From NCBI GenBank assembly GCA_013822685.1, contig PNKV01000001.1, forward strand, positions 124,001 to 188,000: a stretch of DNA of 64,000 nucleotides, given 5' to 3'. How positions within the stretch are numbered: position 1 is the first letter of the stretch; each line of letters starts with the position of its first letter. Of the stretch, positions 26,100 to 50,400 are shown in pieces. Under the pieces are notes generated by a model. That model did no database searches. It was given only the letters and a program-made list of their open reading frames with translations, and had not been told where the DNA came from. Source of the DNA: Leptothrix sp. (in: b-proteobacteria) (GTDB lineage Bacteria > Pseudomonadota > Gammaproteobacteria > Burkholderiales > Burkholderiaceae_C). The position numbers were made by a program, and so were the translations under genes.

Positions 26100-27482
26100 A
26101 TGCACATTCACATTCTTGGCATTTGCGGCACCTTCATGGGTGGCGTGGCCGCGTTGGCCCGCGAAGCCGGTCACCGCGTGACGGGTTGCGACGCCGGGGT
26201 CTACCCGCCGATGAGCGACCAGTTGCGCGCCTTGGGCATCGAGCTGATCGAGGGCTACACCCCGGATCAGCTTGAGCTCAAGCCCGACCTTTTCGTGATC
26301 GGCAACGTGGTCTCGCGCGGCAACCCGCTGATGGAAGCGATCCTGAACGCCGGGCTGCCCTACACCAGCGGCCCGCAGTGGTTGAGCGAGAACGTGTTGC
26401 GGGGACGGCATGTGCTGGCCGTGGCCGGCACGCATGGCAAGACCACCACCACGTCCATGCTCACATGGATCTTGGAACATGCCGGCTTGCAGCCGGGCTT
26501 CCTGGTCGGTGGCGTGCCGCAAAACTTTGGCGTGTCCGCCCGCCTGGGTGATCTGGACGAAACGCGGCGCCCTGCTTCGGGCCACCCCTTCGTGATCGAG
26601 GCCGACGAGTACGACACCGCGTTTTTCGACAAACGCAGCAAGTTCGTCCATTACCAGGCGCGCACTGCCGTGCTGAACAACCTCGAGTTTGACCACGCCG
26701 ACATCTTTGCCGACCTGGCCGCGATCGAGACCCAGTTCCACCACCTGGTGCGTACCGTACCGGGCCAGGGCCGCCTGGTGGTCAATGCCCGTGAAGACAG
26801 CTTGCAACACGTGCTGGACCGCGGCTGCTGGAGCGATGTGGTTCGCTTTGGCGTGCGGGGCGATGTGCCGGGTTTCCGTGCCCGTGGAGAGCCCCACGCC
26901 TTCGACGTGCTCAAAGCCGCCGTGCTGGTGGGCCGCGTCGAATGGAGCCTGATGGGCGAGCACAACCAGATGAACGCGCTGGCCGCCATTGCCGCGGCCG
27001 AGCACGTGGGCGTGTCGCCACAAGTGGCTTGCGAGGCCCTGAGCCAGTTTGCCAACGTCAAGCGTCGTCTGGAGCTGCTGGGCGAGGTGAAGGGCATCAC
27101 CGTGTACGACGACTTCGCCCACCACCCCACCGCCATCCGCACCACCGTGGATGGATTGCGCCGGCGCATCAACCCTGACCAACGCATCATTGCGGTGTTC
27201 GAGCCCCGTTCCAACACCATGAAGCTGGGCACCATGAAGGCACTGTTGCCCTGGTCACTCGAAGAGGCTGACCTGTCCTTCTGCCACAGTGGCGGGCTTG
27301 GTTGGGATGCGGCTGAAGCGCTGGCGCCCATGGGTGACCGCGCTGTCGTGGTCGACAACATCGACACGCTGGTGGCCAAGGTGGTCAAGGTGGCCAAGCC
27401 GGGTGACCAGATCCTGTGCATGAGCAATGGCGGCTTTGGCGGCATCCACGGCAAGCTGCTCAAAGCGCTGGCCGACGCATGA
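26100..27482 (+). CDS. mpl: UDP-N-acetylmuramate:L-Ala-gamma-D-Glu-meso-DAP ligase
   Basis: Peptidoglycan-recycling ligase that joins salvaged tripeptide to UDP-MurNAc; 460 residues. The N-terminal HILGICGTFMGGVA loop, the ATP site GTHGKTTTTSM, EADEYDTAFFDKRSKF and the C-terminal DDFAHHPTAI motif are typical of Mpl rather than MurC. Its TGA overlaps the ATG of the following flavoprotein, tying this housekeeping gene to the pigment-type cluster. Confidence 0.96.
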   Translation: MHIHILGICGTFMGGVAALAREAGHRVTGCDAGVYPPMSDQLRALGIELIEGYTPDQLELKPDLFVIGNVVSRGNPLMEAILNAGLPYTSGPQWLSENVLRGRHVLAVAGTHGKTTTTSMLTWILEHAGLQPGFLVGGVPQNFGVSARLGDLDETRRPASGHPFVIEADEYDTAFFDKRSKFVHYQARTAVLNNLEFDHADIFADLAAIETQFHHLVRTVPGQGRLVVNAREDSLQHVLDRGCWSDVVRFGVRGDVPGFRARGEPHAFDVLKAAVLVGRVEWSLMGEHNQMNALAAIAAAEHVGVSPQVACEALSQFANVKRRLELLGEVKGITVYDDFAHHPTAIRTTVDGLRRRINPDQRIIAVFEPRSNTMKLGTMKALLPWSLEEADLSFCHSGGLGWDAAEALAPMGDRAVVVDNIDTLVAKVVKVAKPGDQILCMSNGGFGGIHGKLLKALADA

Positions 27483-28819
27483 CTGCGACGAAGGAAACAT
27501 CGCCCGTGACTGCCACCCCAACCACTTTGACTTGTGACGTCTTGATCATTGGCGGCGGCCCTGCCGGGTCCACCGCCGCGGCCTTGCTGGCACAGCGCGG
27601 CATGAATGTCGTGCTGCTTGAGAAAGCCCAGCATCCGCGCTTTCACATCGGTGAATCACTGCTGCCAGCCAATGTGCCGCTGCTGGACCAGTTGGGCGTG
27701 CGCGAAGAAGTCGAAGCGATGGCGATGCCCAAGTACGGCATCGAGTTTGTCTCGCCTTGGCACCAGGACCGCACCTTCCTGGAGTTCCGCGAGGCCTGGA
27801 ACAAGTCCATGGACAAGGCCTACCAGGTGCGCCGTTCGGATTTCGACCACATCTTGATCAAGAATGCCGCGCGCAAAGGCGCCCAGGTGATCGAGAACTG
27901 CCGCGTCAAGTCGGTGGATTTTCTGCCCGACGAAAGCGGTGCCGTGGTGCAAGCCCAGCACGCCGACGGGCAAGCCGCGACATGGCAAGCCCGCATGGTG
28001 ATTGATGCCTCGGGCCGCGACACCTTCCTGGCCAACAAGCTGGACACCAAGGTCAAGAACAAGAAGCACAACAGTGCCGCCCTGTTCGGCCACTTCACCA
28101 ATGCCGAGCGCCTGGAAGGCAAGCTGGAAGGCAACATCAGCCTGTTCTGGTTCGAGCATGGCTGGTTCTGGTTCATCCCGCTGGCCGATGGCACCACCAG
28201 CATTGGCGCAGTGTGCTGGCCCACCTACCTCAAGACACGCAAGAACAGCGTGCAAGAGTTTTTCATGGAGACCATTGCGCTGTGCCCGCCGCTGCAAGCG
28301 CGGCTCAAGGATGCGCAACTGGTGTCCGAGGTTGAAGCCACAGGCAATTACTCGTATAGCTGCAAGCAGGCTCGTGGGCCCAACCATCTGCTGCTGGGCG
28401 ATGCCTTCGCTTTCATCGATCCCGTGTTTTCCTCGGGCGTGTTCCTGGCGATGAACAGTGCCTTCTACGCGACCGAGGTGGTGCATGCGGCACTGCGCGC
28501 GCCCCATCAACTGGCGGCTGCGACCAAGCAGTTTGACCGCGTGATGCAAAAGGGACCGCGCGAGTTCTCGTGGTTCATCTACCGCGTGACCAACCCCACC
28601 ATGCGCGACCTGTTCATGGGGCCGCGCAACATGTTCCGCGTCAAGGAAGCCGTCATGTCCATGTTCGCCGGAGACATCTTTGGCAAGACGCCGATCTGGC
28701 CATCGCTGTATGTTTTCAAAGGCATCTACTACATCGGTTCGCTGCTCACGCTGAGGCGCACGCTGGAAGCAGCACGGCGCCGCAAGATCAACATCAGTGA
28801 CACGGCCACGGTCCGTTGA
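27479..28819 (+). CDS. FAD-dependent oxidoreductase, flavin-halogenase-like
   Basis: A 446-residue flavoprotein of the tryptophan-halogenase/geranylgeranyl-reductase superfamily. The FAD motif is LIIGGGPAGSTAAALL near the N-terminus, the second site FHIGESLLP follows, and a WxWxIP motif (GWFWFIP) lies near residue 230, a mark of flavin-dependent halogenases. The FAD-distal GDAFAFIDPVFSSGV is also present. The start at 27479 overlaps the mpl stop (ATGA). It heads the plus arm of the aryl-polyene-type cluster. Halogenation or hydroxylation of the aryl head is the likely role; reductase activity is the alternative. Confidence 0.82.
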   Translation: MTATKETSPVTATPTTLTCDVLIIGGGPAGSTAAALLAQRGMNVVLLEKAQHPRFHIGESLLPANVPLLDQLGVREEVEAMAMPKYGIEFVSPWHQDRTFLEFREAWNKSMDKAYQVRRSDFDHILIKNAARKGAQVIENCRVKSVDFLPDESGAVVQAQHADGQAATWQARMVIDASGRDTFLANKLDTKVKNKKHNSAALFGHFTNAERLEGKLEGNISLFWFEHGWFWFIPLADGTTSIGAVCWPTYLKTRKNSVQEFFMETIALCPPLQARLKDAQLVSEVEATGNYSYSCKQARGPNHLLLGDAFAFIDPVFSSGVFLAMNSAFYATEVVHAALRAPHQLAAATKQFDRVMQKGPREFSWFIYRVTNPTMRDLFMGPRNMFRVKEAVMSMFAGDIFGKTPIWPSLYVFKGIYYIGSLLTLRRTLEAARRRKINISDTATVR

Positions 28820-29892
28820 TGCGTGACGAGGTGAATGCGGTCATGAGTCAGCTGCAGCTTGATTACATCCCGATTGAAGACCTGGCCTCGTGGACCGAGG
28901 CCTTGGAGGGCCACCGCCAGGTCTTGGGCATGGCGATGTTTGGCCGGCCCGACGCTGCTGAACGAGCCGAGTTTGAGCGGGTGTCGAAGCGGGACTGGCC
29001 TCGCCTGGCTTTGCCCGTGCTGGGCCATGCCACATCGGCGTGGGCCGAGGTGTGGTCGGTGCCCAAAAATGCCGCGCCCATCGAACATGGCGAGCTGGAT
29101 GGCGTGGGCTATGCCCGTTGCCAGGATCTCGTCTTTGCATGGGTGAACACGCCGCTGTCAGGCCCGGACGCCGCGTTGGCGCCCTTGACGCGCCAGACCT
29201 ACGATGCCCTGTTCAAGGCGCTGAACCAGCTGGGTTGCCCCCACCCTTGGCGGTTCTGGAACTACCTGCCTGACATCCTGGGTACCCTCCAGGGCGAGGA
29301 GCGTTACCGCATTTTCAATGTGGGCCGCCACGAGTCATTCTTGCAGCACGCCAGCATGATCGACCCTCATCCGCCTGCCGCTTGCGCGCTGGGGCAGCCC
29401 GCTGGATTCGAAGGGCCTTTGACCGTTTACGCGCTGGCTTCCACGGCACAAGCGCATCCGGTCGAGAACCCTCGCCAGATCAGCGCTTACCGCTACCCGC
29501 CGCAGTATGGGGTGCGCAGCCCGACCTTTTCACGCGCGGCCGTGGCCCAGCTCGACGCCGAAGCCACCGTGTTCATCTCGGGCACGGCCAGCATCGTGGG
29601 GCACGAGACCGTGCACCTGAATGACGTGAGCGCACAGACCGAAGAGACGCTGAACAACATCGAGGCCTTGCTGCAGCAGTTCAAAGTTGAACGCCCCGGT
29701 TTGGCCTGGACAGCGGCCGACCTGAAGTTCAAGGCGTATGTGCGCCATGCCGAAGACCTGCCGCTGGTGCGCGAAGTGGTCGAGCGGCGGTTGGGCACAC
29801 GGGCATCCTGCTGCTACCTGCATGCGGTGGTCTGCCGCCCTGACCTCTTGGTCGAGATTGAAGCATCTGCCACCCGGAGCCAAGCCGCATGA
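28819..29892 (+). CDS. chorismatase (XanB2/FkbO/Hyg5-type), hydroxybenzoate supply
   Basis: A 357-residue protein resembling chorismatases, which release pyruvate from chorismate to give 3-hydroxybenzoate, 4-hydroxybenzoate or dihydroxy products. Supporting motifs: RFWNYLPDILG (about 144-154), RYRIFNVGRHESF (about 162-174), ISGTASIVGHETVH (about 252-265) and CRPDLLVEIEA at the C-terminus (about 338-348). Xanthomonas XanB2 uses this reaction to start xanthomonadin synthesis, and the neighbours here are polyene-synthesis genes. The ATG at 28819 overlaps the flavoprotein stop (TGATG). The regiochemistry of the product cannot be read from sequence. Confidence 0.83.
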   Translation: MRDEVNAVMSQLQLDYIPIEDLASWTEALEGHRQVLGMAMFGRPDAAERAEFERVSKRDWPRLALPVLGHATSAWAEVWSVPKNAAPIEHGELDGVGYARCQDLVFAWVNTPLSGPDAALAPLTRQTYDALFKALNQLGCPHPWRFWNYLPDILGTLQGEERYRIFNVGRHESFLQHASMIDPHPPAACALGQPAGFEGPLTVYALASTAQAHPVENPRQISAYRYPPQYGVRSPTFSRAAVAQLDAEATVFISGTASIVGHETVHLNDVSAQTEETLNNIEALLQQFKVERPGLAWTAADLKFKAYVRHAEDLPLVREVVERRLGTRASCCYLHAVVCRPDLLVEIEASATRSQAA

Positions 29893-30779
29893 CCATTTCC
29901 CCTTTGGCCCGCTGGATGGCGGCCCCCTTGATCGCCGGGCTGCTCAGCTTGGCGCATGCCCAGCCCGAAGGCCCTTTGCTGGTCGAGCCCACGACACCCG
30001 ATCAAGGCAAGCTGAAGCCCCTGTGGGAGCTGGGCTTGGGCGTGGCCGGTGCCACCTTGCCCGATTACCGCGGCTCGGACGAAAGCCGCGCCTACGTGCT
30101 GCCCCTGCCCTATGTGGTTTACCGCGGCGAAGTGCTCAAGGCCAACCGCGACGGCGCGAGCGCAGAGCTGTTCCACGGCCGCCGCGTCAAACTCGGCCTG
30201 AACGCGAACGCCAGCATCCCGGTGTCGAGCAAACGGAATCGGGCCCGCGAAGGCATGCCCAATCTGGCCGGGTCGGTGGAGATCGGGCCGGCGCTGGACG
30301 TGCGCCTCTTTGAGTCGGCCAGCGGCTTGGTCCGGGTGAACTTCAGGCTGCCCGTGAGCGCCGGGGTCACGATTGGCCAGGGCAGCCCTTCGTCAACGGG
30401 CTGGCAAACGGCGCCCCACGTGAACATCGACATGGCCAATGTGGGCGGCTGGTCGGGCTGGAACCTGGGCGCCTTGGTCGGGCCGATCTACGCCAACCGC
30501 CGGCGCAACGCCTACTTCTATGACGTGGCGCCCCAGTATGTGCGGGCCGACCGCCCGGCCTATGAGAGCCGCGCCGGCTATTCAGGCAGCCAGTTCACCG
30601 CCGCCCTGAGCAAACGCTTTGACGGCTTCTGGGTGGGCGCTTTTGTTCGCCACGACGACTTGCACGGCGCCGTGTTTGAAGACAGCCCGCTGGTCAAGAA
30701 AAAGAGCTACCTGGCGGCAGGCGTGGGGGTGTCCTGGATCTTGGGGCAGTCGTCGACGCTGGTGGCGGTGGACGACTGA
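29889..30779 (+). CDS. MipA/OmpV-family outer-membrane protein
   Basis: A 296-residue beta-barrel type protein with an N-terminal signal peptide (cleavage likely after LAHA). The MipA-type start WELGLGVAGATLPDYRGSDE is followed by strands alternating aromatic and small residues, and the protein ends in a barrel-like segment. The family is linked to outer-membrane scaffolding or permeability. The ATG overlaps the chorismatase stop (ATGA), so it is embedded in the pigment arm; transport or anchoring of the product is inference. Confidence 0.85.
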   Translation: MTISPLARWMAAPLIAGLLSLAHAQPEGPLLVEPTTPDQGKLKPLWELGLGVAGATLPDYRGSDESRAYVLPLPYVVYRGEVLKANRDGASAELFHGRRVKLGLNANASIPVSSKRNRAREGMPNLAGSVEIGPALDVRLFESASGLVRVNFRLPVSAGVTIGQGSPSSTGWQTAPHVNIDMANVGGWSGWNLGALVGPIYANRRRNAYFYDVAPQYVRADRPAYESRAGYSGSQFTAALSKRFDGFWVGAFVRHDDLHGAVFEDSPLVKKKSYLAAGVGVSWILGQSSTLVAVDD

Positions 30780-30790: not shown

Positions 30791-31579
30791 ATGAAGACGC
30801 TGCGTGCCCTGGCCCAATACCCGCTGTTCTACGCGGGGTTGCTGCTGCTCGGCTTGATGTGCCTGGGGTGGTGCTTCCTGGCCTGGACAGTCAGGCCGTT
30901 CATGTCGCCCGACAAAGCGCGTGTACTGGGCCGGTCAGGCATCAGTGGCGGCTTTCGCCTGTACTTTGCCTTCACCAGTTGGCTGGGCCTGACCCGCTTT
31001 GAGCTGGACGAACTCGATGCACTCAATGGCCAGCCATCGCTGATCCTGGCGGCCAACCACCCTACTTTCCTGGACGCGGTTTTCCTGATCTCGCGGCTGA
31101 AGAACGCCGGCTGCATCATGAAATCCGACGTGGTGGACAACCCGTTTTTAGGGGCGGGCGCACGGCTGGCCGGGTTCATCCGCAATGACAGCCCACGCAA
31201 CATGGTCAGGCAGTCCGTGGGTGATCTGCGCCAAGGCAGCCACCTGCTGGTGTTTCCCGAAGGCACGCGCACCATCGACCGGCCGGTCAACGATTTCAAG
31301 TCGGGCTTTGCCCTGATCGCCAAGGGTGCCCAGGTGCCCGTGCAGACCGTGTTCATCGAGAACAGCTCGCCCTTCCTGACCAAAGGCTGGCCCATCCACC
31401 ACAGGCCGCCCAGCTTCCCCATGGTTTACCGGGTGCGGCTTGGGCAGCGCTTCATGGTCGGCGGCGACGCCAAGCTGTTCACCCGCGACTTGCAACGTTA
31501 TTTTGAACAAGAGCTCGCCAAAGCCGAATTGGCGCTCAACGTTACTCACCACCATTCCGAGCTTCAAGTCCATGACTGA
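30791..31579 (+). CDS. lysophospholipid/glycerol acyltransferase (PlsC family)
   Basis: A 262-residue membrane acyltransferase. A long N-terminal hydrophobic segment (LLLLGLMCLGWCFLAWTV) precedes the NHPTFLD box (H-X4-D) and FPEGTRT. GGTCGGAG lies just before the ATG. It is one of two acyltransferases in the pigment-type cluster and could attach the polyene acyl chain or a fatty acid to a glycerol-type acceptor. It overlaps the next gene by eight bases. Confidence 0.85.
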   Translation: MKTLRALAQYPLFYAGLLLLGLMCLGWCFLAWTVRPFMSPDKARVLGRSGISGGFRLYFAFTSWLGLTRFELDELDALNGQPSLILAANHPTFLDAVFLISRLKNAGCIMKSDVVDNPFLGAGARLAGFIRNDSPRNMVRQSVGDLRQGSHLLVFPEGTRTIDRPVNDFKSGFALIAKGAQVPVQTVFIENSSPFLTKGWPIHHRPPSFPMVYRVRLGQRFMVGGDAKLFTRDLQRYFEQELAKAELALNVTHHHSELQVHD

Positions 31580-32369
31580 GTCGAGTCAGACCTCCGTGAC
31601 TCCGTCACGCACGCACCTTGTGCTGATTCCGAGCTACAACGCAGGCCAGCAGGTGTACGACACCGTCAAGGCCGCGCGGCGGCAGTGGAATCCGGTCTGG
31701 GTTGTTGTGGATGGCAGCACCGACGGCACTGACCGAGGCCTTCAAGCCATGGCAAGCCAGGATGAGGGCCTGAAGGTGTTTGTGTTGCCCGAGAACCAGG
31801 GCAAAGGCGCCGCCGTGCTGCGCGGTTTGCGCGAAGCCCAGGCGGCCGGGTTCACGCATGCGCTGACCATGGATTCAGACGGCCAGCACCCCGCTGCGCT
31901 GATCCCTGATTTCATGCGCGCCTCGATGCAGCGGCTTGACACGATGGTGCTTGGGCGCCCGGTGTTTGACAGCAGCGCCCCCTTGTTGCGGGTGCGCGGA
32001 CGGCGAGTCTCCAACTGGTGGACCAACCTCGAGACCCTGGGTGCCGGCATTGCCGATTCCTTGTATGGCTTTCGGGTGTACCCCGTGCCGGACCTCATCA
32101 AGGCCATGGCCCGCCAACCGTGGATGCGCCGTTTTGATTTCGACACCGAGGCCGTGGTGCGGTTAGCGTGGAGCGGGGTCAAGCCGGTGAATCTGGATGC
32201 GCCGGTGAAATACCTGCGGCCCGACGAAGGCGGGGTGTCGCACTTTCGCTATGGCCGCGACAACGTGCTGCTGACCTGGATGCACTTGCGCCTCATGCTT
32301 GAGTTTGCGCTGAGGCTGCCCGTGCTGGTGGTGCGCCGGTTGATGCGCAAGCCACCATTTCAGCGTTGA
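31572..32369 (+). CDS. family 2 glycosyltransferase
   Basis: A 265-residue GT-A fold enzyme: LVLIPSYNAGQQVYDTV at the N-terminus, VVVDGSTDGTDRG (nucleotide-sugar site), ENQGKGAAVLRG and the metal-binding TMDSDGQHP. A C-terminal hydrophobic segment is weak. The chosen start at 31572 (MTESSQTSV) overlaps the acyltransferase stop; the longer frame reading back to 31440 lies inside that gene. In xanthomonadin and some aryl-polyene clusters a glycosyltransferase decorates the polyene ester, which is the inferred role. It is the last gene of the plus arm. Confidence 0.87.
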   Translation: MTESSQTSVTPSRTHLVLIPSYNAGQQVYDTVKAARRQWNPVWVVVDGSTDGTDRGLQAMASQDEGLKVFVLPENQGKGAAVLRGLREAQAAGFTHALTMDSDGQHPAALIPDFMRASMQRLDTMVLGRPVFDSSAPLLRVRGRRVSNWWTNLETLGAGIADSLYGFRVYPVPDLIKAMARQPWMRRFDFDTEAVVRLAWSGVKPVNLDAPVKYLRPDEGGVSHFRYGRDNVLLTWMHLRLMLEFALRLPVLVVRRLMRKPPFQR

Positions 32370-34354: not shown

Positions 34355-35085
34355 GATGGCATTCCCCCATTGATTGATATGACTTGACCGCTGATGTAGG
34401 CGGCGGCGTCCGAGGCCAGGAAGGCCACCAGATCAGCCACTTCGCTGGGCTGGCCCGCGCGCTTCATGGGCACCATTTGCGCGATGGCCGCGGCATCGAA
34501 AGCGCCCTCAGCCATGCTGCCCTGGATGATGCCGGGGGCCACCACGTTGACGGTGATGCCCCGACTGGCCAGCTCCAGCGACAAGGATTTTGACGCCCCG
34601 TGCAGCGCCGCCTTGGCCGCCGCATAGTTCACCTGCCCGCGGTTGCCCACCACCGCGGCGATGGACGACACACTGATGATGCGCCCCCAGCGGGTGCGGA
34701 TCATGGGCATGCTCAAAGGCTGCGTGACGTTGAAGAAGCCGTGCAGCGACACATCGATCACCCGATGCCACTGCTCTGGGCGCATGCCCGGGAAAACCGC
34801 GTCGTCGTGGACGCCGGCATTGTTGACCAGCACCTGGATGGGCCCCTCGTCCAGCAGGGCCTCCAGGCTGGTCGCGCAGGCCTGGGCATCGCTCACATCG
34901 AAGGCGACCGCACTGGCCTGGCCTCCGGCCGCCACGATCTCGTCCACGACCTCCTGGGCCCGTTCCAGGCGCGAGTTGGCGTGAACGATGACGTGGTATT
35001 GCGCGGCCAGGCGTTTGCAGATGGCCGAGCCAATGTCGCCGCTGCCCCCCGTGACCAGGGCGCGTTTGAGGACTGGGGTGTTCAT
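34351..35085 (-). CDS. 3-ketoacyl-ACP reductase (FabG-like, ApeQ type)
   Basis: A 244-residue short-chain dehydrogenase. The NADP motif TGGSGDIG, the NNAG structural motif and the catalytic S...Y...K set (SVSSIAAV, then NYAAAK) are all present. It would reduce the beta-keto group in each polyene extension round. Four-base overlaps link it to the dehydratase before and the antiporter after. FabG of fatty-acid synthesis is the alternative, but the setting favours the dedicated pathway. Confidence 0.9.
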   Translation of the reverse strand: MNTPVLKRALVTGGSGDIGSAICKRLAAQYHVIVHANSRLERAQEVVDEIVAAGGQASAVAFDVSDAQACATSLEALLDEGPIQVLVNNAGVHDDAVFPGMRPEQWHRVIDVSLHGFFNVTQPLSMPMIRTRWGRIISVSSIAAVVGNRGQVNYAAAKAALHGASKSLSLELASRGITVNVVAPGIIQGSMAEGAFDAAAIAQMVPMKRAGQPSEVADLVAFLASDAAAYISGQVISINGGMPS

Positions 35086-36367: not shown

Positions 36368-36369
36368 GT

Positions 36370-42916: not shown

Positions 42917-43636
42917 TCAACGCGAGGGGTCGGACAAAGGCAAAGGCAAAGGCAGCTTGCCCAGCATCTGCCGCCAAAGGCTAATCCAGGCGGGCCAATC
43001 ATGCCCGCCCTCTACCGTGAAGACCCGATCAGGGGGCAGCGACTCGGCCACCACGCGGTGGCCCATGGCGAACCGGTCGCTCAGGCCATAGCCCCAGTAC
43101 AGCGGAAGCAAGGACTTGGCCGATGCGGGATCGGCCTGTGCCTTGAGCCAAAGCCACAAGCGACGATCGACGTCGTCTTCCGGCAAGCTCTGGCCCGGGG
43201 CTGGCCACGGGGCCAAACCGCCTGCGCGCACCACGTCAACGCTGATGTTGCGGGGCCCCAGGTAAGGCGCCAGAGCGACCACGCCACTGATGCCTTCGGG
43301 GTGACTGGCGGCGCACATGAGGGACCCCATGCCGCCGATGGAGATGCCTGCCAGCCAGATCTGCTCATAGCCGTGCGCCCGCGCTGGCCCGATCACGTCC
43401 TGCTGCAGGCGCTCAAGGATGGTCTGCTGGGTGTAGTAGCCGACATGAGCATTGACCAGTTGCACGTCCACCGCCAAGTGCCGCTCGCGCACCGCCGCCA
43501 CGAAGCCCTCGCGGACAAAATCCTGCGGGGTATCGTAGGCACCGGGCAGCATCACCAACAGCACCTTGGCCCTCTGAGCGCAGGCACTTGGGTCCGCCAA
43601 GTCAAGCAGTGACTCCATGGACGCGTGCGGGTTCAT
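42917..43636 (-). CDS. alpha/beta hydrolase
   Basis: A 239-residue alpha/beta-hydrolase fold protein. The nucleophile elbow is GISIGGMG (Ser near residue 97), VVALAPYLGP follows, and a candidate catalytic His is in VEGGHDWPAW near the C-terminus. No signal peptide. Within this cluster it may release or transfer the finished polyene from the ACP, standing in for the thioesterase of other aryl-polyene clusters; an esterase on another substrate is possible. The ATG overlaps the MMPL stop (ATGA). Confidence 0.8.
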   Translation of the reverse strand: MNPHASMESLLDLADPSACAQRAKVLLVMLPGAYDTPQDFVREGFVAAVRERHLAVDVQLVNAHVGYYTQQTILERLQQDVIGPARAHGYEQIWLAGISIGGMGSLMCAASHPEGISGVVALAPYLGPRNISVDVVRAGGLAPWPAPGQSLPEDDVDRRLWLWLKAQADPASAKSLLPLYWGYGLSDRFAMGHRVVAESLPPDRVFTVEGGHDWPAWISLWRQMLGKLPLPLPLSDPSR

Positions 43637-46035
43637 GGCCGAGGCCGGTGCAGCACCGCCGCCAGCACCAGGGCCAGGATCGCGCCAGGCCCCACGGTGG
43701 CCCCAATGGCATGCAACACGGGCACCTGCGACCAGGCCAACATGCCAAAGCCGGCCACGGTGGTGAGGTTGGCAAACACCATGGACGACAGAATGGCCGC
43801 ACTGGGCACGGCCGCATGGGCACGCTGGTCAAAGAACAAAGCGTAGTTTGAGCCGATGGCCACGATCAGCAACAGGCCGACCAGGTGGAACAAGGTCAAG
43901 GGCGGCCCTGTGGCCACCAAACCCGCCGTCACGATCAACACGGTCAGCAGCAAAGGCGCCACCACGCGCAGCAAGCGCACCGGTGAACGCAGCACCGCGC
44001 CCAGCAAGATCAGGATCGCCAAGCCGCCGAGCAGCGACAGGTGAATGACCTCGCTCAGGTAATCCGAATAAAGCTTCTCGGACTCGGCTTTGAGGTCGAT
44101 GAAATACACCTGCCCGCCCTTCACCGATGCTTTCAGCAACTGGCGGATGCGCGCCGCATCCAGCACGGGCGCATCCTTGGCTTGATCCGTGGGCAAGCGC
44201 AGGCCGACCAGCGCCGTCCATTGGCCCGATTGCCGCATCAGCAGCGAATCAACCCCCAAGGCCAGGGAGCTGCCATTCAAGTCGGCACGCGTGAGCAGCG
44301 GCAGGCGCTTGGCCTCGGCCGCATCGGTGAAGAAAGCTTCGAACTTCTCAGCCTTTAGCGGCAGGCCCTGAGCGGCCTGGGCGAACCGGCTCCGCAATGT
44401 GTCAGCATCGGGCAAGGCAGCCTGGCGCTGGCGCTGCATGGCCTGGCTGGGCAGGTAGCGGGCCGCGCTGTCCACGCCCAGCAGCATGCCGCTGTCCACC
44501 AAGGGCGCCAATGCTTGCGTGGCTTGCTCGGCCCCTTGAAGCGCGGCTTCCATGCTGGTGGCCCGAATTACGCCCAGGTAACGCACATCAGGGGCGCCCA
44601 GGTCAGCGCGCAAGTTCATGTCCAGGGTTTGCGCTTCGGCCGTGATCGGGCTGAGGGAGCTCAACTCCCGGCTCCACAGACGATCGCGGTGCATGAACAG
44701 CACCACCACGGCGCCCGCGAACAGGGCCATGGCCAACCAGCGCAGGCGCGGTGCATGGGCCGCAATCCAGGTGAGCCGCGCGTCCAGGCCAGGCGTTGGC
44801 GTGATGCTGAAACCTTGCGGAATCATGTGCGGCAAGACCCAGCGCGTCACCAGCGCTGCCGACAAGATGCCCACGATGGAGAACAGTCCCAATTGCGCCA
44901 GGCCTGGGAAACCAGAAGCCAGCATGGACGCGAAACCCATGACCGACGTCAGCACGCCCAAACTGACCGTGGGCCAGAAGTTGGAGGCCCTCCCCTCACC
45001 CTGGTCCTTGCCACCGCCCTGCACAAACAGGTAGATGGCGTAGTCGACCGCCTCACCGATCAGCGTGATGCCAAAGCCCAGGGTGATGCCATGCACCACA
45101 CCGAATCCCCATGAGACCGCGGCGATGCCCGCCAGCGCACCCGTGGCCATGGGCAACAGACCCAGCAGCAGTGCCCTTGGTGAGCGGTAAATGCTCAAGA
45201 GCAAAGTGATGATGATGCCGGCACCGATCATCGACAGCCGGGTGGCCTCCGACTCGATCGTGTGGCGCGACTGCGTGGCAAAGACCCCGGGGCCCGACAC
45301 AACCAGGCGCGCCTGCGCCAAGCCCGCCTGCTGCCTGGCCTGTTCGAACTGTTGATGGATGGCATCGATGGCACGCTGTTGGGCGTCGAGGTCAGAGCCC
45401 TCCGCCTGGGTTTGCGCCACCAGCACCGCGCGCTGCTGATCGGCCGACATCCAGACGCCATCGACCATGGTGCGCTCGCCACCGGTGTCCATGCCCTCCA
45501 CCAGGTGCACCAACTCGGCGGTGGGGTCGCGCGTCAGCAAGGGCTGCAACATCAAGCCCGCTGATGAGCCCAGCAACTCCAGGCTGTCTTGCAGCGCAGC
45601 GCGCAATCCGTCTGGCTGAAAGCGTGCCGGCGTCACGTCCGGGCTGAGCAGGTAGCGGTAGCGGAGCAGCACGCTCTGATCACGTTGCGACGACACCAGC
45701 TCGCCATTGTTCACCGAGGCAAACGGCGCCGATTTTTCACCCGGCAACGGGGGCAGCTGCCGCAGCCGCTGGGCCAATGCCTTGGACAAGCGTGCCAGTT
45801 CGGTCGCCCGCAGCGAGTCTTTGCCCTCGGCTTGCAGCCCCACCAGGATGAGTCGAGAGGCAGGCCCCTCCTTCAACTGGTCGATCAGCACCGATTGTTC
45901 AGGGGTGGGACGGCTGGGCAGGAAGGCCGACAGGTCGGCGGTGTAGCGAGCCCTGACCACGGCGACCAGGCAAACCGCCAGCACGACCAGCCAGACCAAG
46001 ATGGCCGGCAGGCCTTTATAACGACGCTCGCTCAT
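43633..46035 (-). CDS. MMPL/RND-type lipid exporter (ApeM/XanF-like)
   Basis: An 800-residue inner-membrane transporter of the RND superfamily. An N-terminal membrane segment (GLPAILVWLVVLAVCLVAVV) precedes a large periplasmic loop, then five clustered membrane segments, and the pattern repeats in the second half. GFGITLIGEAVDYAIYLFV is the typical helix with an acidic residue for proton coupling. It is flanked by a LolA-like carrier, as in aryl-polyene clusters where the pair is thought to move the polyene lipid toward the outer membrane. Confidence 0.9.
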   Translation of the reverse strand: MSERRYKGLPAILVWLVVLAVCLVAVVRARYTADLSAFLPSRPTPEQSVLIDQLKEGPASRLILVGLQAEGKDSLRATELARLSKALAQRLRQLPPLPGEKSAPFASVNNGELVSSQRDQSVLLRYRYLLSPDVTPARFQPDGLRAALQDSLELLGSSAGLMLQPLLTRDPTAELVHLVEGMDTGGERTMVDGVWMSADQQRAVLVAQTQAEGSDLDAQQRAIDAIHQQFEQARQQAGLAQARLVVSGPGVFATQSRHTIESEATRLSMIGAGIIITLLLSIYRSPRALLLGLLPMATGALAGIAAVSWGFGVVHGITLGFGITLIGEAVDYAIYLFVQGGGKDQGEGRASNFWPTVSLGVLTSVMGFASMLASGFPGLAQLGLFSIVGILSAALVTRWVLPHMIPQGFSITPTPGLDARLTWIAAHAPRLRWLAMALFAGAVVVLFMHRDRLWSRELSSLSPITAEAQTLDMNLRADLGAPDVRYLGVIRATSMEAALQGAEQATQALAPLVDSGMLLGVDSAARYLPSQAMQRQRQAALPDADTLRSRFAQAAQGLPLKAEKFEAFFTDAAEAKRLPLLTRADLNGSSLALGVDSLLMRQSGQWTALVGLRLPTDQAKDAPVLDAARIRQLLKASVKGGQVYFIDLKAESEKLYSDYLSEVIHLSLLGGLAILILLGAVLRSPVRLLRVVAPLLLTVLIVTAGLVATGPPLTLFHLVGLLLIVAIGSNYALFFDQRAHAAVPSAAILSSMVFANLTTVAGFGMLAWSQVPVLHAIGATVGPGAILALVLAAVLHRPRP

Positions 46036-46037: not shown

Positions 46038-46655
46038 TCAGCGCGGCGAGGGGCTCGTGGGTGCGGGCGTGATCGTCATGACGGAGCGGTCTCCGTTGCC
46101 CTGAAGGATTTCAATGGTGTCCACGCGCTCGCGCTCGCCACTGAGCTTGACCTGGCTGACCATCGCCGCGGCCTTGGCTTGCAGAGGGCGCAGCAACAGG
46201 TGCCAGCGGTCACGCTTGCCTTCCAGCGCGACCTGGTAGTTCTGGTCCAGTGCCTTGCGGTCACCGGCCAGCGTGGCACGGATGCTTTCGACGAAGGCGC
46301 CGACTTCGGGATAGGACTGCAGGGGAATGCTGCGCTTGCGCCCCTTGCGCTCCAGCAGCAGCACGTCCTTGTCGAGCACCAGCGACTCCGGGCTGGGCTT
46401 GAGCGTGCGCTTTTCAAGGCGGTCAGGGGCCTCGTACACCAACTCACCCGAGGATTCGAGGGGCGCCTCCACGGCGCTGAGGTACTTTTGCTCCACGAAG
46501 GTCGCGCGGCTGGACCTGTTCTGGGCAAGCAGCTGCATCAGGGTGTCAACGCCCCAATCTTGCGCCTGCGCGGCGCCGCCGAGCAACATGCCAAAGGCCA
46601 GCAATGCAGTGCCCAGGGCCCGCCGGCGCAGCTGGTCAATGTTCACCAAGCTCAT
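46038..46655 (-). CDS. LolA-like outer-membrane lipoprotein carrier family protein
   Basis: A 205-residue exported protein: a signal peptide (LGTALLAFGMLLGGAAQAQ) followed by a LolA-type fold start DTLMQLLAQNRSSRATFVEQKYL and the YEAPDRLEKRT strand. The start at 46655 lies within the last 20 bases of the acyltransferase gene. Together with the MMPL exporter it probably carries the hydrophobic product through the periplasm; general LolA for lipoproteins is expected elsewhere. Confidence 0.85.
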   Translation of the reverse strand: MSLVNIDQLRRRALGTALLAFGMLLGGAAQAQDWGVDTLMQLLAQNRSSRATFVEQKYLSAVEAPLESSGELVYEAPDRLEKRTLKPSPESLVLDKDVLLLERKGRKRSIPLQSYPEVGAFVESIRATLAGDRKALDQNYQVALEGKRDRWHLLLRPLQAKAAAMVSQVKLSGERERVDTIEILQGNGDRSVMTITPAPTSPSPR

Positions 46656-47526
46656 CCCAGAAATCATAAAAATTGAACCAGTTGTAGGGGGCTTGGCGGC
46701 AGTAGTGGTCCAAGCGGCTGACATACAGATCAATGACCTGATCCACCGTGGGCGCACCCGGTTGGGAGAAGTCGGCCAAGTGCTCAAAATGTATCTCATA
46801 GCGGTTGCCGCCGAGGTACAAGCCAACGATCAGCACCACCGGCCGTTTGAGCATGGCGGCCAGCCTGAATGGCCCCACGGGGAAGCTTGCGGGCGTCCCC
46901 AGCAAGTCGACTCGTCGACCGGGCTCGCCGCTCAGGGTGCGGTCGCACAGCATGCCCACCATCTCACCGCGCTCCAGGCAATGCTTGACGCGCAGCATGG
47001 AATCAACGGTGCCCAAAGGGATGATGTTGTGCTTGACGTCCGGGTTGATGGCAGAGAGCACCTGGTTGAGTTTGACCGCGTTGTCTTCGTACATGACCAT
47101 CGAGACGGCCAGGTCGCCGACATCCTGGCTGCTGGCGCGCACCGCCTCGAAGCTGCCCAGGTGGGCCCCCACCATGACGGCACCCCGTCCCAGCGCCAGG
47201 GTGTCGTGGACCGCCTTTTGGCCGACCAAGGTGGTGTTGAACAGATCAAAGCGATTGTTCAGCAGGTAGAACCGGTCCAGGATGGTGGACGCGAAACAGA
47301 ACACATGGCGAAAGCCGTCGATCCAGCCGGGCTCTCGGCCCAGCACACGGCGCAGGTAGGCGATCGACGCCCTGCGCGCCTTGGGCACGGCCAGCACGAA
47401 ATACCAGCTGATGGGGTACAGCAGAAGACGCGCCACAGGCCGGCCCAGGCGCTGCGCCACCCAGACGATGAAGCGCAAGGCCAGCATGTTGCTGCGCTCG
47501 GCATGTTGCATCCACACGGCGGCCAT
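46636..47526 (-). CDS. LpxL/HtrB-like acyltransferase
   Basis: A 296-residue membrane-linked acyltransferase of the lipid A biosynthesis type. RSNMLALRFIVWVAQRLGRPVARLLL begins the hydrophobic N-terminus, GAHLGSFE is the H-X4-E catalytic box, and CDRTLSG and FPVGPFRLA follow. The ATG at 47526 comes one base after the dehydratase stop. In aryl-polyene clusters such enzymes are thought to attach the polyene to a lipid carrier; that acceptor is inferred. Confidence 0.88.
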   Translation of the reverse strand: MAAVWMQHAERSNMLALRFIVWVAQRLGRPVARLLLYPISWYFVLAVPKARRASIAYLRRVLGREPGWIDGFRHVFCFASTILDRFYLLNNRFDLFNTTLVGQKAVHDTLALGRGAVMVGAHLGSFEAVRASSQDVGDLAVSMVMYEDNAVKLNQVLSAINPDVKHNIIPLGTVDSMLRVKHCLERGEMVGMLCDRTLSGEPGRRVDLLGTPASFPVGPFRLAAMLKRPVVLIVGLYLGGNRYEIHFEHLADFSQPGAPTVDQVIDLYVSRLDHYCRQAPYNWFNFYDFWDELGEH

Positions 47527-47527
47527 G

Positions 47528-47890: not shown

Positions 47891-49335
47891 GGGGATGGGG
47901 CGGGTGACTGCGCACCTGATTCAAGGCGCCGGGCCAACTCGACGATGGCCGCGTGGGGTAACTTGCCGGTGGCATTGCGCGGCAGGTGGTCGACAAAATA
48001 CAAGGGGCGCGGCATGAAGGCAGGGTCGATGCGCTGGCGCAAGGCCGTCGTCAGCTGGGCAGCGCTGAGCATGGGCGCCACCACCACGGCGGCCAGGCGC
48101 TTGACGCCATCCTGGTGGCCATCGCCCGCGCGCGCATCGGTCTCGGGCCAGATGAAAGCCCCGTCCACCACGCCCGCGATGGCATTGAGCTGCAGGTTCA
48201 AATAGCCCAGCGAGGTTCGCTTGCCCGCCACGTTCACCATGTCGGCCGAGCGGCCATGCAAGATGAAACGCGCCGCCAAACCATCGCGCGAGGTCAACGG
48301 TTCGCACATCTCGAGCACGTCGTTCAAGGCCATGGCCTCTTCCAGGTGCCCGCCATGGACAGAGACCTGGCCATCTTCTTGTTGCGTCATCTGCAGGCCC
48401 TCAAAGGCCAGCCACTGCACCGCTTGGGCACTGCGGCGCGTGGCCAGCTGCCCGGTTTCGGTGCTGCCATACACCTCGAGCAAAGGGCCGCCGCAACGTT
48501 GCTCAGCCTCCTTGGCCAATTGGGATGACAGGGGCGCGGTCGCGGACACGATCAAGTCCACAAGAGGCACCTGCTCAGACTCGGCCAACCAGGTGCGCAG
48601 GTGGAACGGCGTGGTCACCAGCACCTTGGGCGACGGCAAAGCGGCCAAGGTGGCAGACACATCAGCGGGATAAAAGGGACGCTCGGCCACCATGGCCGCG
48701 CCGCTTTGCCAGGCCACCAGCACCGTCGACTCCAGGCCATACATGTGCTGCGGCGGCACCGTGCCCACCAGGCTGTGGCCCGATTGGGCCGACAAGCCCA
48801 GACGCCGAGCCTCTGCCCGCACATTGCGCACCAGCGAACCCCAGCGCTTGACATGCTCCGTAGGACGGCCCGTGGACCCGGAGGTGAAGACGCAGGCGAT
48901 AACCTGCTGGGCCGGGATCTGGGGAACGGCCAAGGGCACTTGCCCGGCAGGGGCCCAATCGCCGGAACGCCGCGGATAAATGGCTTGCGGCAAATCCAAG
49001 GTCGCCACGACCTGCTCGCTCAGGCCATAGACCTGCGGGTAGGCGTCCAGCATTTGCCGCACCATCTCAGGGTTGTGCGAGGGCGGCAACAAGCTGACTT
49101 GCCCACGGGTGATGGCCGCGGCCAGCCCCACGGCAAAGTGGTAGCGGTCGGTGCAGGCGTTCAGCACATGGGATCGGTCGGGCAGGCTCGAAGCCACACG
49201 CGCCACATCGTCCAGAAACTCGGCCACCAAGATGGCCCGTCCCTGCCGATAGGAAAAGACCGAGTCCATCGACGCGTGAACCAACAAGGGAAGCAGGTGC
49301 AGCACGGTGCCGTCCGGCAGATCAGCGTGGTTCAT
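47887..49335 (-). CDS. AMP-dependent aryl/acyl ligase (XanA2/ApeH-like)
   Basis: A 482-residue adenylating enzyme. The phosphate loop FTSGSTGRPTEHVKRW (about residues 150-165), the adenine motif EVYGSTETGQ and the C-terminal LPRNATGKLP lysine loop are clear. It is expected to activate the hydroxybenzoate starter and load it on the nearby ACP. Fatty-acid activation is the alternative. It overlaps the membrane-protein gene by 14 bases. Confidence 0.88.
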   Translation of the reverse strand: MNHADLPDGTVLHLLPLLVHASMDSVFSYRQGRAILVAEFLDDVARVASSLPDRSHVLNACTDRYHFAVGLAAAITRGQVSLLPPSHNPEMVRQMLDAYPQVYGLSEQVVATLDLPQAIYPRRSGDWAPAGQVPLAVPQIPAQQVIACVFTSGSTGRPTEHVKRWGSLVRNVRAEARRLGLSAQSGHSLVGTVPPQHMYGLESTVLVAWQSGAAMVAERPFYPADVSATLAALPSPKVLVTTPFHLRTWLAESEQVPLVDLIVSATAPLSSQLAKEAEQRCGGPLLEVYGSTETGQLATRRSAQAVQWLAFEGLQMTQQEDGQVSVHGGHLEEAMALNDVLEMCEPLTSRDGLAARFILHGRSADMVNVAGKRTSLGYLNLQLNAIAGVVDGAFIWPETDARAGDGHQDGVKRLAAVVVAPMLSAAQLTTALRQRIDPAFMPRPLYFVDHLPRNATGKLPHAAIVELARRLESGAQSPAPSP

Positions 49336-50014
49336 GGGGCGTTTGAACGGGCTTGGCCTCAGGCCAGCCGTGGCGAAACATCTGCAAACTGCCCAGGATG
49401 GAGCTGTGCCGGATGTTGCGCAGCTTGTAGCGGCGGACCGCGTACTCCCCGGCGAACATCAAGCCCACCAGCGGGCTGTTGACCAGATTGGAGAAAGTGG
49501 ACCAGGTCTCAACCGAGGCCAGCCCATACAAACCGGCCGACACCGAAGCCACGGCGGCAAAAAACAGCGCCCAGGCCGCGGTGGCGCCCCGTGTGAAGGT
49601 CAACACCTCGGGCGGCATGTCGCCTTGGCGCATGACGCGAGCAAACCGCGTGATCAGCGGCTCACGCCCGCCCAGCAGGGTGTGGCCAAACATCCAGCAC
49701 AGCGCCAGGTTCGTGCAGATGTGCTGAATGACATACAGCAAATTCAAATCGCCCTGCCACTTGGGCAGGCCCCAGGCCAGCAATCCCAGCAATGGCGCCA
49801 CCACGCCTGCGGCGGCAGTGGTGCCCCAGCGGGTGGCCAATGCTGAAAACAGCATGGCCAAAACAGGAACGAAGTAAAGCCAGGGCGCCCAAGGTGACCG
49901 GTGCACCGTGGCAAAGTGGCAAGCAAGCAGGTAGGCGGCCAAAAGCGCCAATGCACCTGCGGCGCCAGACAAGGCCAGCCACACAGAGGGCACGCCAGGC
50001 GAGGTGGACTTCAT
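49322..50014 (-). CDS. polytopic membrane protein of aryl-polyene clusters (COG4648-like)
   Basis: A 230-residue protein with about six hydrophobic segments (AGALALLAAYLLACHFA, LYFVPVLAMLFSAL, AGVVAPLLGLLAWGL and others). It contains FAGEYAVRRYKLRNIRHSSI near the C-terminus, a motif typical of the small membrane protein next to the ligase in these clusters. Its biochemical role is unknown. It follows the ACP gene by 53 bases. Confidence 0.75.
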   Translation of the reverse strand: MKSTSPGVPSVWLALSGAAGALALLAAYLLACHFATVHRSPWAPWLYFVPVLAMLFSALATRWGTTAAAGVVAPLLGLLAWGLPKWQGDLNLLYVIQHICTNLALCWMFGHTLLGGREPLITRFARVMRQGDMPPEVLTFTRGATAAWALFFAAVASVSAGLYGLASVETWSTFSNLVNSPLVGLMFAGEYAVRRYKLRNIRHSSILGSLQMFRHGWPEAKPVQTPHEPR

Positions 50015-50067
50015 GGCCGTGAGCGTTTGAACTGCAAAAACCCGAACCGGTTGAGGGCCGGGCTTGA

Positions 50068-50400
50068 TTATTTGGTGCGATGCGCGCTGACGTGCTGGGC
50101 CAGGCTGCGCAGCGAGCTGAAGATCTGCACATTGCGCTCATCGTCGGAACGCAATTGGAATCCGTATTTTTTGGACACCACCAGCGCGATTTCCAGAATG
50201 TCGATCGAATCCAGACCCAGGCCGTCGCCATAGATGGGACCCTGAGGATCGACCTCGGCCGCCGTCAGGTCCAGGTTCAGCGACTGGATGATCAACTCAG
50301 TCAGCTCCGACTCCAGCACTGGATCAACAGGGGCTGCCCCCGAGGTTGACGGGGTGGAAACTGCGCCTTCGGTGGCCGGGTTTTGCGCTGAAATCTGCAT
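50068..50400 (-). CDS. acyl carrier protein (XanC/ApeE-like)
   Basis: A 110-residue carrier protein. The 4'-phosphopantetheine site is GLGLDSIDILEIAL with Ser near residue 65, in an acidic helical core (LIIQSLNLDL, GPIYGDGLG). A Ser/Thr/Ala-rich N-terminal extension of about 35 residues precedes the core. The ATG at 50400 is used; a TTG at 50418 is unlikely. It is the first gene of the 18-kb minus arm and the only ACP seen; no phosphopantetheinyl transferase gene is in the window. Confidence 0.9.
   Translation of the reverse strand: MQISAQNPATEGAVSTPSTSGAAPVDPVLESELTELIIQSLNLDLTAAEVDPQGPIYGDGLGLDSIDILEIALVVSKKYGFQLRSDDERNVQIFSSLRSLAQHVSAHRTK

What the first reader, a model, noticed from the sequence alone, without database searches (positions are those of the whole stretch)
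27479..50400. Two-armed xanthomonadin/aryl-polyene-type pigment cluster of about 23 kb
Seen: ACP, AMP-ligase, two ketosynthase/chain-length-factor pairs, two dehydratases, a ketoreductase, two acyltransferases, a glycosyltransferase, a LolA-like carrier, an MMPL exporter, two halogenase-like flavoproteins, a methyltransferase and a chorismatase, arranged as two convergent operons with chains of start/stop overlaps. Established: xanthomonadin and aryl-polyene lipids are made by such sets and protect against oxidative and light damage. Inference: this strain makes a membrane-bound, possibly halogenated or methylated, glycosylated polyene of hydroxybenzoate. The gene set (extra KS/CLF pair, deacetylase, antiporter, MipA) does not match the E. 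coli/Vibrio aryl-polyene or Xanthomonas sets as I know them.
Basis: partly seen in the sequence, partly recalled or inferred. Interest (0 to 1): 0.82.

Follow-up and report, generated by a model that had tools for sequence, protein, structure and literature searches.

The report
Aryl-polyene pigment cluster, two chain-builders
This is a gene cluster for a yellow, probably light-protecting membrane pigment of a kind already described (xanthomonadin/arcuflavin), with the unusual twist that a second chain-building enzyme pair of separate descent and a candidate brominating enzyme sit inside it.

Summary
In detail: window 27479-50400 is a two-armed convergent cluster of 24 genes in a draft genome of the genus of Aquabacterium sp. 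CECT 9606. The comparison with known sets is half right. MipA, antiporter, deacetylase, methyltransferase, chorismatase and GT2 belong to the published arcuflavin loci of Azoarcus BH72, in the same order. The real departure is one cassette, KS2-CLF2-FDH2 (39178-42912). KS2/CLF2 is a second ApeO/ApeC-type pair in a clade apart from the resident one. FDH2 occurs in 73 of 149 genomes of the Alkalisalibacterium family but 3 of 349 of the window's order. In 6 of 6 arc-type main clusters fetched from KS2-only genomes the resident pair is missing, so the cassette can probably do the same job. FDH2 is a candidate xanthomonadin brominase; FDH1-type relatives in the same clusters are a rival candidate. 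No DarB match was found in the draft genome, so a resorcinol ester is unlikely. New variant of a known kind; chemistry inferred, not shown.

The parts
27479..28819 (+). ArcA-like FDH1, flavin-dependent halogenase family, 446 aa
   Evidence: Trp_halogenase 7.2e-36; best solved chains are halogenases 5buk, 7fco; WxWxIP and FxxPxxSxG in 25 of 25 distinct sequences
28819..29892 (+). ArcB-like chorismatase (FkbO/Hyg5/XanB2 family)
   Evidence: TIGR04444 2.4e-65, below its curated cut-off; PDB 5ag3 3.2e-46
29889..30779 (+). ArcC-like MipA outer-membrane protein
   Evidence: PF06629 1.1e-36
30791..31579 (+). ArcD-like acyltransferase (ApeD counterpart)
   Evidence: PF01553 4.9e-15; 32% to CFT073 ApeD
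31572..32369 (+). ArcE-like GT2 glycosyltransferase (matches part of ApeJ)
   Evidence: PF00535 3e-19; 40% to ApeJ over 240 aa
32383..32961 (-). BamE-like protein, not in the arc table
   Evidence: PF04355 3.5e-4, below cut-off; found by tblastn in some of the Aquabacterium loci, not in L191
33020..34354 (-). ArcG-like CPA2 Na+/H+ antiporter
   Evidence: PF00999 2.1e-49
34351..35085 (-). ArcH-like ketoreductase (ApeQ)
   Evidence: FabG model NF004200 1.9e-107; 47% to ApeQ
35082..35564 (-). ArcI-like dehydratase (ApeP)
   Evidence: PF22817 ApeP-like 5e-4, below cut-off; 25% to ApeP, E 0.003
35555..36373 (-). CLF1, ArcJ-like half-length chain-length factor (ApeC)
   Evidence: PF13723 1.4e-29; PDB chains 7f28_A, 6qsp_B
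36370..37557 (-). KS1, ArcK-like ketosynthase (ApeO)
   Evidence: PDB chains 6qsp_A, 7f28_B; Cys-His-His intact
37593..38375 (-). ArcM-like SAM methyltransferase
   Evidence: PF13649 2.5e-12
38372..39181 (-). ArcN-like polysaccharide deacetylase
   Evidence: PF01522 5.3e-33
39178..40818 (-). FDH2, second halogenase-family flavoprotein; third gene of the extra cassette
   Evidence: PF04820 4.1e-13; PltA and CmlS among PDB hits; WxWxIP and FxxPxxSxG in 82 of 82 distinct sequences
40868..41659 (-). CLF2, second half-length chain-length factor
   Evidence: PF13723 1.4e-31; PDB chain 6qsp_B 5.3e-10
41659..42912 (-). KS2, second ApeO-type ketosynthase, clade apart from KS1
   Evidence: PDB 7f28_B 1.7e-66; tree; Cys-His-His intact
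42917..43636 (-). alpha/beta hydrolase in the position of arcO; possible release or transacylation enzyme
   Evidence: PF00756 1.9e-8
43633..46035 (-). ArcP-like MMPL/RND exporter (ApeM)
   Evidence: PF03176 2.1e-12; 25% to ApeM
46038..46655 (-). ArcQ-like LolA carrier (ApeL)
   Evidence: PF19574 1e-21; 25% to ApeL
46636..47526 (-). ArcR-like acyltransferase (matches part of ApeJ)
   Evidence: PF03279 2.6e-8; 31% to ApeJ over 304 aa
47528..47890 (-). ArcS-like dehydratase (ApeI)
   Evidence: PF07977 3.6e-8; 35% to ApeI over 65 aa
47887..49335 (-). ArcT-like AMP-ligase (XanA2/ApeH)
   Evidence: PF00501 6.4e-19; 28% to ApeH
49322..50014 (-). ArcU-like protein, counterpart of the membrane protein ApeG
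   Evidence: no Pfam or NCBIfam hit; BLAST 28% and hhalign probability 99.1 to ApeG
50068..50400 (-). ArcV-like acyl carrier protein
   Evidence: NF006617 2.5e-38; 47% to the CFT073 ACP at L209 30024-30281

Best explanation
The locus makes an outer-membrane aryl-polyene lipid of the xanthomonadin/arcuflavin type. The chorismatase makes hydroxybenzoate, the AMP-ligase loads it on the ACP, a KS/half-CLF heterodimer extends it with malonyl units, KR and two dehydratases make the conjugated chain, the methyltransferase caps the phenol, GT2 plus two acyltransferases and a deacetylase build the lipid anchor, and MMPL, LolA and MipA carry it to the outer membrane. It differs from the described arc set by an extra cassette, KS2-CLF2-FDH2, of the kind found in xanthomonadin-type clusters and of separate ancestry. 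Most likely KS2/CLF2 is a second, working elongation pair, and FDH2 halogenates (in nature brominates) the aryl ring, so that this strain can make a brominated xanthomonadin without resorcinol on an arc-type scaffold. Shown by sequence: gene content, homology, intact catalytic residues, purifying selection, separate descent of the cassette, no detectable DarB. Inferred: substrates, order of steps, bromination, division of labour between the pairs.
For: Enzyme classes. Same set in the published arc loci, where insertions in arcK and arcT abolish the pigment (PMC3949708). KS1 and KS2 match ApeO best, 42% and 41%, against 31% and 30% for ApeR. KS2 clade of 60 rows at 100/99 apart from KS1. Of 80 loci found by FDH2, 63 have KS2 and CLF2 within three genes upstream. 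In 10 of 12 regions fetched from the Alkalisalibacterium family the cassette genes lie in a two-armed pigment cluster; of the other two, L241 shows FDH2 alone and L243 is a short stretch without KS2/CLF2. FDH2 in 73 of 149 genomes of that family against 3 of 349 of the window's order. KS1/CLF1 absent from 6 of 6 arc-type main clusters fetched from KS2-only genomes. dN/dS 0.05-0.28 for FDH2, CLF2 and KS2 in four comparisons. Bromination: Steroidobacter cummioxidans makes a dibrominated xanthomonadin and the 7 Steroidobacteraceae loci in my set carry the cassette, whereas Azoarcus, with ArcA and no second halogenase in its table, makes a non-brominated pigment, and L. enzymogenes, with no halogenase gene, too. 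DarB: no match at 1e-30 in the own genome, against DarB-like matches in 5 of 23 genomes, none of them over the model's cut-off.
Against: No chemistry, expression or colour data exist for this strain. FDH2 is only distantly related to solved halogenases (E 1e-13 to 1e-16, top hit an annotated flavoprotein/dehydrogenase). FDH1-type genes occur beside the cassette too: 28-30% relatives in 7 of 7 Steroidobacteraceae loci and 43-61% relatives in 6 of 12 regions of the Alkalisalibacterium family, so the brominase could be FDH1-like, and only the Azoarcus comparison speaks against that. The correlation rests on four lineages; strain 35Y itself is not in my set, and the paper gives its formula with O3 in the text and O2 in a table. 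Nine of 80 FDH2 loci have neither KS2 nor CLF2 nearby, two of them at contig edges, so the cassette is not an obligate unit. The genome is a draft, 93.56% complete. Absence of FDH2 in Azoarcus is read from a table, not searched.
Confidence: 0.64

Rival explanations
1. KS1/CLF1 and KS2/CLF2 make two different acyl chains: one the aryl polyene, the other a second chain for the lipid anchor or a polyene of another length.
For: Both pairs lie side by side in six Aquabacterium genomes and are under purifying selection; KS2 and CLF2 diverge faster than KS1 and CLF1, as expected if their tasks differ. In the APE system the two ketosynthases already differ in chain length (ApeO-ApeC long, ApeR short; PMC8358021 passages).
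Against: Only one ACP, one ligase and one KR are in the cluster. In Variovorax and relatives KS2/CLF2 is the only such pair found at 1e-60, with the rest of the arc set present, which fits the same product.
Confidence: 0.25
2. The cassette's ketosynthase pair is redundant: KS1/CLF1 makes the pigment and KS2/CLF2 is passing through or decaying.
For: Hydrogenophaga-type loci L076, L078 and L079 show FDH2 without KS2/CLF2; KS2-type genes are rare in the window's order.
Against: Intact catalytic triad; dN/dS 0.11-0.28 for KS2 and CLF2, with dS above 1 in three of four comparisons; all 6 FDH2-bearing genomes among 61 relatives also keep KS2 and CLF2.
Confidence: 0.12
3. FDH2 is not the brominase: it is a hydroxylase or another flavin oxidoreductase, or the FDH1-type enzyme halogenates instead.
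For: Best PDB hit is an annotated flavoprotein/dehydrogenase (3nix); modest E-values to solved halogenases; a long C-terminal part outside the matched region; FDH1-type genes stand in Steroidobacteraceae and Alkalisalibacterium-family clusters as well, and window FDH1 matches solved halogenases far better than FDH2 does.
Against: Both halogenase motifs (recalled) in 82 of 82 FDH2 sequences; Azoarcus has ArcA (FDH1 type) but a non-brominated pigment; cassette present in a family with a dibrominated producer.
Confidence: 0.35
4. It is simply an ordinary arcuflavin cluster whose product is a dialkylresorcinol ester.
For: Nearly complete arc gene set.
Against: No DarB match at 1e-30 in the own genome or in the 7 same-genus genomes searched, though the model finds DarB-like genes in 5 of 23 genomes.
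Confidence: 0.06

Closest known systems
Arcuflavin arc loci, Azoarcus sp. BH72 (PMC3949708)
   Same: Counterparts by annotation and order of arcA-E, arcG-K and arcM-V; compared with the table, not by sequence
   Different: Azoarcus halves are unlinked and come with a DAR cluster; here one locus, no DarB found, no arcF, arcL, arcW or arcX seen, plus KS2-CLF2-FDH2 and a BamE-like gene
Xanthomonadin-type clusters of Lysobacteraceae and Steroidobacteraceae
   Same: KS2, CLF2 and FDH2 relatives; ACP, LolA, MMPL, DH, KR, acyltransferases, and in part of the loci chorismatase and AMP-ligase
   Different: There KS2/CLF2 is the only pair of this type seen; a GT2-like gene lies between CLF2 and FDH2 in 10 of the 12 regions of the Alkalisalibacterium family fetched
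Enterobacterial aryl polyene (ape) cluster, E. coli CFT073
   Same: BLAST counterparts of ApeC, D, G, H, I, J, L, M, O, P, Q and one ACP; ApeO-ApeC type heterodimers
   Different: No counterpart of ApeR, ApeK, ApeN, ApeA, ApeB or of a second ACP at E 0.01; has its own chorismatase and halogenase-family genes
Split arrangement in Variovorax, Xenophilus and a Burkholderiales MAG
   Same: Arc-type main cluster plus KS2-CLF2-FDH2 cassette in one genome
   Different: Main cluster lacks KS1/CLF1 in the 6 fetched, and the cassette lies at another place

Membership tests
Xanthomonadin/arcuflavin-type aryl-polyene cluster | Dedicated chorismatase of the XanB2/FkbO fold | tested here: met
   the product (3-HBA or 4-HBA) cannot be told from sequence, as PMC3949708 says
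Xanthomonadin/arcuflavin-type aryl-polyene cluster | AMP-ligase, ACP, KS with half-length CLF, KR and dehydratases | tested here: met
Xanthomonadin/arcuflavin-type aryl-polyene cluster | LolA-like carrier, MMPL exporter, GT2 and acyltransferases | tested here: met
Xanthomonadin/arcuflavin-type aryl-polyene cluster | Yellow polyene pigment with aryl head | not testable with these tools
   no strain or spectra
Arcuflavin (polyene-dialkylresorcinol ester) | DarB in the genome | tested here: not met
   NF053539: no match at 1e-30 in G000; DarB-like matches in 5 of 23 genomes, 0 of 23 over the cut-off of 550 bits; of the 4 own KAS III-type genes scanned the best scores 45.9 bits; draft genome, 93.56% complete
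Brominated xanthomonadin | Bromine on the pigment | not testable with these tools
   only candidate genes (FDH2, FDH1) can be seen
Enterobacterial ape cluster | ApeR-type FabB-like second ketosynthase | tested here: not met
   both KS match ApeO better than ApeR and fall outside the branch with CFT073 ApeR
Flavin-dependent halogenase (FDH2) | GxGxxG, WxWxIP and FxxPxxSxG motifs (motifs recalled, from no call) | tested here: met
   82 of 82 distinct sequences for the last two, 77 of 82 for the first
Flavin-dependent halogenase (FDH2) | Halogenating activity | not testable with these tools
   needs an enzyme assay

The most novel reading that the evidence does not exclude
A transferable xanthomonadin cassette, KS2-CLF2-FDH2, moves between beta- and gammaproteobacteria, can replace the resident ketosynthase pair of arc-type clusters, and carries the xanthomonadin brominase; Aquabacterium keeps both pairs and makes a brominated hybrid pigment or two polyenes at once.
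Probability: 0.36. Interest if true: 0.6.

Novelty: new variant of a known kind. Interest (0 to 1): 0.42.

Why it matters
Two KS/half-CLF heterodimers in one aryl-polyene cluster give a natural test of what the half-CLF decides (chain length, rate or starter). The pattern of presence and loss across genera points to one gene, FDH2, as a candidate brominase of xanthomonadins, which no passage that I read identifies, and makes it testable by one deletion. It also suggests that the elongation pair is an exchangeable module in a widespread family of membrane pigments.

Tried and rejected
Rejected: KS2 as a recent duplicate of KS1 (separate clades). Rejected: KS1 or KS2 as ApeR. Rejected: simple common descent of the Aquabacterium cassette with 18 other betaproteobacterial ones (p-AU 4.9e-5); caution, I chose that group after seeing the KS and FDH2 trees, and this is a quick tree. 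A donor in Lysobacteraceae looked likely from the first KS tree (98/90 with Alkalisalibacterium) and the FDH2 tree, but with more rows of that family the concatenated tree does not resolve it (support 63), so I name no donor. Rejected: BamE-like gene as ApeN (hhalign probability 0.1). A first ORF picker by length failed in this GC-rich DNA; a codon-usage caller replaced it. Promoter and terminator patterns at 46000-52000 were near the shuffled means, and one short tandem array at 43795-43824 was not followed. The order-wide searches scored only 4 or 5 candidates per genome and may miss genes. The structure of the APE lipid anchor was looked for in print; the 12 of 20 papers listed gave nothing that I could use. 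Aquabacterium with aryl polyene: 0 papers in the held library; xanthomonadin with halogenase: 4. Structure prediction and fold search were not used.
Full report
What is there. The window lies on contig C1 of a 4.2 Mb draft genome, 93.56% complete. The closest named relative at this locus is Aquabacterium sp. CECT 9606 (L022, cluster proteins 88-98% identical), whose contig of 888,375 bases is that of G016, listed as the same genus as the window's genome. The region 27479-50400 holds five genes on + and nineteen on -, converging at about 32370. 14 of the 23 neighbouring-gene junctions in the cluster overlap by 1-20 nt.

It is an arc-type cluster. The arcuflavin loci of Azoarcus sp. BH72, read in PMC3949708 Table 1, list halogenase, chorismatase, MipA-like protein, acyltransferase, glycosyltransferase, antiporter, ketoreductase, dehydratase, half ketosynthase and ketosynthase, and in a second, unlinked locus methyltransferase, deacetylase, a hypothetical protein, exporter, LolA, acyltransferase, dehydratase, AMP-ligase, a hypothetical protein and ACP. 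The window has these functions in the same relative order on one locus. So antiporter, MipA and deacetylase are part of a described set. No counterpart of arcF, arcL, arcW or arcX was seen. Plasmid insertions in arcK and arcT made Azoarcus colourless. I compared with Azoarcus by gene table only, not by sequence.

Against the E. coli CFT073 ape cluster (L209; gene letters assigned by me from the table seen), BLAST at E 0.01 finds counterparts of ApeC, D, G, H, I, J, L, M, O, P, Q and one ACP; the ApeP match is weak (E 0.003). ApeJ is matched by two genes here, the GT2 and the acyltransferase R. No ApeK, ApeN, ApeA or ApeB counterpart was found, and no KS here is closest to ApeR.

The departure: KS2-CLF2-FDH2. 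Between deacetylase and esterase lie FDH2 (39178-40818), CLF2 (40868-41659) and KS2 (41659-42912). Both KS proteins match best the KS chains of solved APE heterodimers (6qsp_A, 7f28_B), and both CLFs match the partner chains. That 6QSP is ApeO-ApeC is in a passage of PMC8358021; that 7f28 is the Acinetobacter one is recalled. The Cys-His-His residues stand in 36 of 36 rows labelled KS1 and 61 of 61 labelled KS2, labels being the better BLAST score and including some more distant ketosynthases. In a tree of 101 ketosynthases KS2 sits in a clade of 60 rows (100/99) with Variovorax, Steroidobacter, Rhodanobacteraceae and Alkalisalibacterium, while KS1 groups with arc-type sequences. So the second pair is not a local duplication. 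The program warns of long branches, but at other forks than this one.

FDH2 and the pair travel together. Of 80 loci found by FDH2 (the best 80 of 143), 63 have KS2 and CLF2 within three genes upstream, 4 only KS2, 4 only CLF2 (all at contig edges) and 9 neither (2 at contig edges). Exceptions count: the Hydrogenophaga-type loci L076, L078 and L079 and the Rhizobacter MAG L025 have KS1 in the locus and no KS2, so FDH2 does not need KS2. FDH2 is found in 73 of 149 genomes of the family of Alkalisalibacterium (cut-off 1e-60; all 73 also pass 1e-80), in 3 of 349 of the window's order (cut-off 1e-80, 4 candidates scored per genome) and in 6 of 61 relatives of the window, own genome included. In 10 of 12 regions fetched from the Alkalisalibacterium family the cassette genes are part of a two-armed pigment cluster; L241 shows FDH2 alone and L243 is a short stretch without KS2/CLF2.

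The pairs look exchangeable. With KS1 as query in 28 genomes that hold FDH2 (29 handles given, L096 not held), 26 have a match at 1e-60; by identity, place and tree I class 5 as having both types (G061, G063, G066, G078, G082), 3 as KS1 only (G062, G074, G081) and 18 as KS2 only. In all 6 arc-type main clusters that I fetched from KS2-only genomes (L168, L169, L178, L203, L204, L205) the dehydratase is followed directly by the methyltransferase, where Aquabacterium, Rhizobacter Root404, Hydrogenophaga and G063 have KS1/CLF1. Regions from three further KS2-only genomes are not arc-type: L206 has the cassette in its own cluster, L180, L181 and L207 show no ketosynthase, and L182 a ketosynthase of the CFT073 ApeO branch. 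Conversely G034 and G029, same genus as the window, have KS1/CLF1 and no FDH2. Of 349 genomes of the order, 75 have a match to KS1 at 1e-80; KS2-type genes, by identity and score, occur in 4 (own, G204, G265, G383), and both types only in the own genome. G412 scores higher with KS2 only because its KS1 alignment is cut short (58% over 238 residues against 51%), and I count it as KS1-type.

Ancestry. A quick tree of concatenated KS2, CLF2 and FDH2 from 45 loci puts six Aquabacterium rows with one betaproteobacterial MAG (L026) and apart from 18 other betaproteobacterial rows; holding those with Aquabacterium in one clade costs 70 log units (p-AU 4.9e-5). The group was chosen after the single trees had been seen. 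The donor is unresolved.

Function kept. Against four Aquabacterium relatives dN/dS is 0.08-0.13 for KS1, 0.13-0.21 for CLF1, 0.11-0.17 for KS2, 0.21-0.28 for CLF2 and 0.05-0.11 for FDH2. Both pairs are under constraint. One row of that table (FDH1 against G004, 25% identity) is a wrong partner, as that fragment lacks FDH1, and is not used.

Likely product. There is no DarB match at 1e-30 in the own genome nor in 7 same-genus genomes, against DarB-like matches in 5 of 23 genomes with the same model (450-468 bits in three, 259-260 in two; none over the cut-off of 550). A resorcinol ester is therefore unlikely, within the limits of a draft. Steroidobacter cummioxidans 35Y makes a dibrominated pigment, C27H28Br2O3 in the text and O2 in a table, and the 7 Steroidobacteraceae loci of my set carry the cassette; the Azoarcus pigment is non-brominated though ArcA is there, and the L. 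enzymogenes cluster lacks a halogenase and its pigment lacks bromine. This points to FDH2 as the brominating enzyme. Against it: an FDH1-like gene of 28-30% identity stands in all 7 Steroidobacteraceae loci and one of 43-61% in 6 of 12 regions of the Alkalisalibacterium family, and window FDH1 matches solved halogenases far better than FDH2 does. Only the Azoarcus comparison separates the two.

Mechanism. Chorismate to hydroxybenzoate, loading by the ligase, iterative extension by KS/half-CLF, reduction and dehydration, O-methylation, optional halogenation, attachment to a glycan-lipid anchor, export by MMPL, LolA and MipA. All steps beyond homology are inferred from the arc, xan and ape systems. 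For the second pair the closest precedent is the complementary action of ApeO-ApeC and ApeR, where adding ApeR raises throughput (PMC8358021 passages); here the helper would be a second heterodimer.

Verdict. Observation confirmed; interpretation half right; a known kind of cluster with a two-pair architecture that is rare in the sampled order.

Noticed in passing
window 27479-27482: The first pigment gene starts inside the stop of mpl, so the left arm looks coupled to hemL-mpl; the neighbourhood is kept in L190, L191 and L193.
   Followed up: partly
L184:2441-7071 and L170:6105-8470: Arc-type clusters of G034 and Hydrogenophaga (G078) have a different extra block beside the ACP: a FabF-like KS, a second ACP and a PAP2-type phosphatase, in L184 also a FabA-like dehydratase, methyltransferase and MipA-like gene (the ACPs and the L170 phosphatase judged by eye).
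   Followed up: partly
L031:11736-13655, L040:11666-13616: In two Variovorax loci the KS2-CLF2-FDH2 cassette is followed by a response regulator and a histidine kinase, reminiscent of arcW and arcX; genes of like size follow it in many other loci, unchecked.
   Followed up: partly
G060 C14:8210-9328 and G082 C14:107118-108236: DarB-like genes (below the model's cut-off) lie within the same stretches as arc-type genes; possible polyene-resorcinol producers.
   Followed up: no
L214:7307-13139 (own genome C20): A separate small block with two KAS III-type enzymes and, by eye only, an ACP, an SDR and an AMP-ligase; product unknown.
   Followed up: partly
window 50482-51291: A glycerophosphodiester phosphodiesterase gene sits 81 bp upstream of the ACP on the same strand and keeps this place in other Aquabacterium loci.
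   Followed up: no
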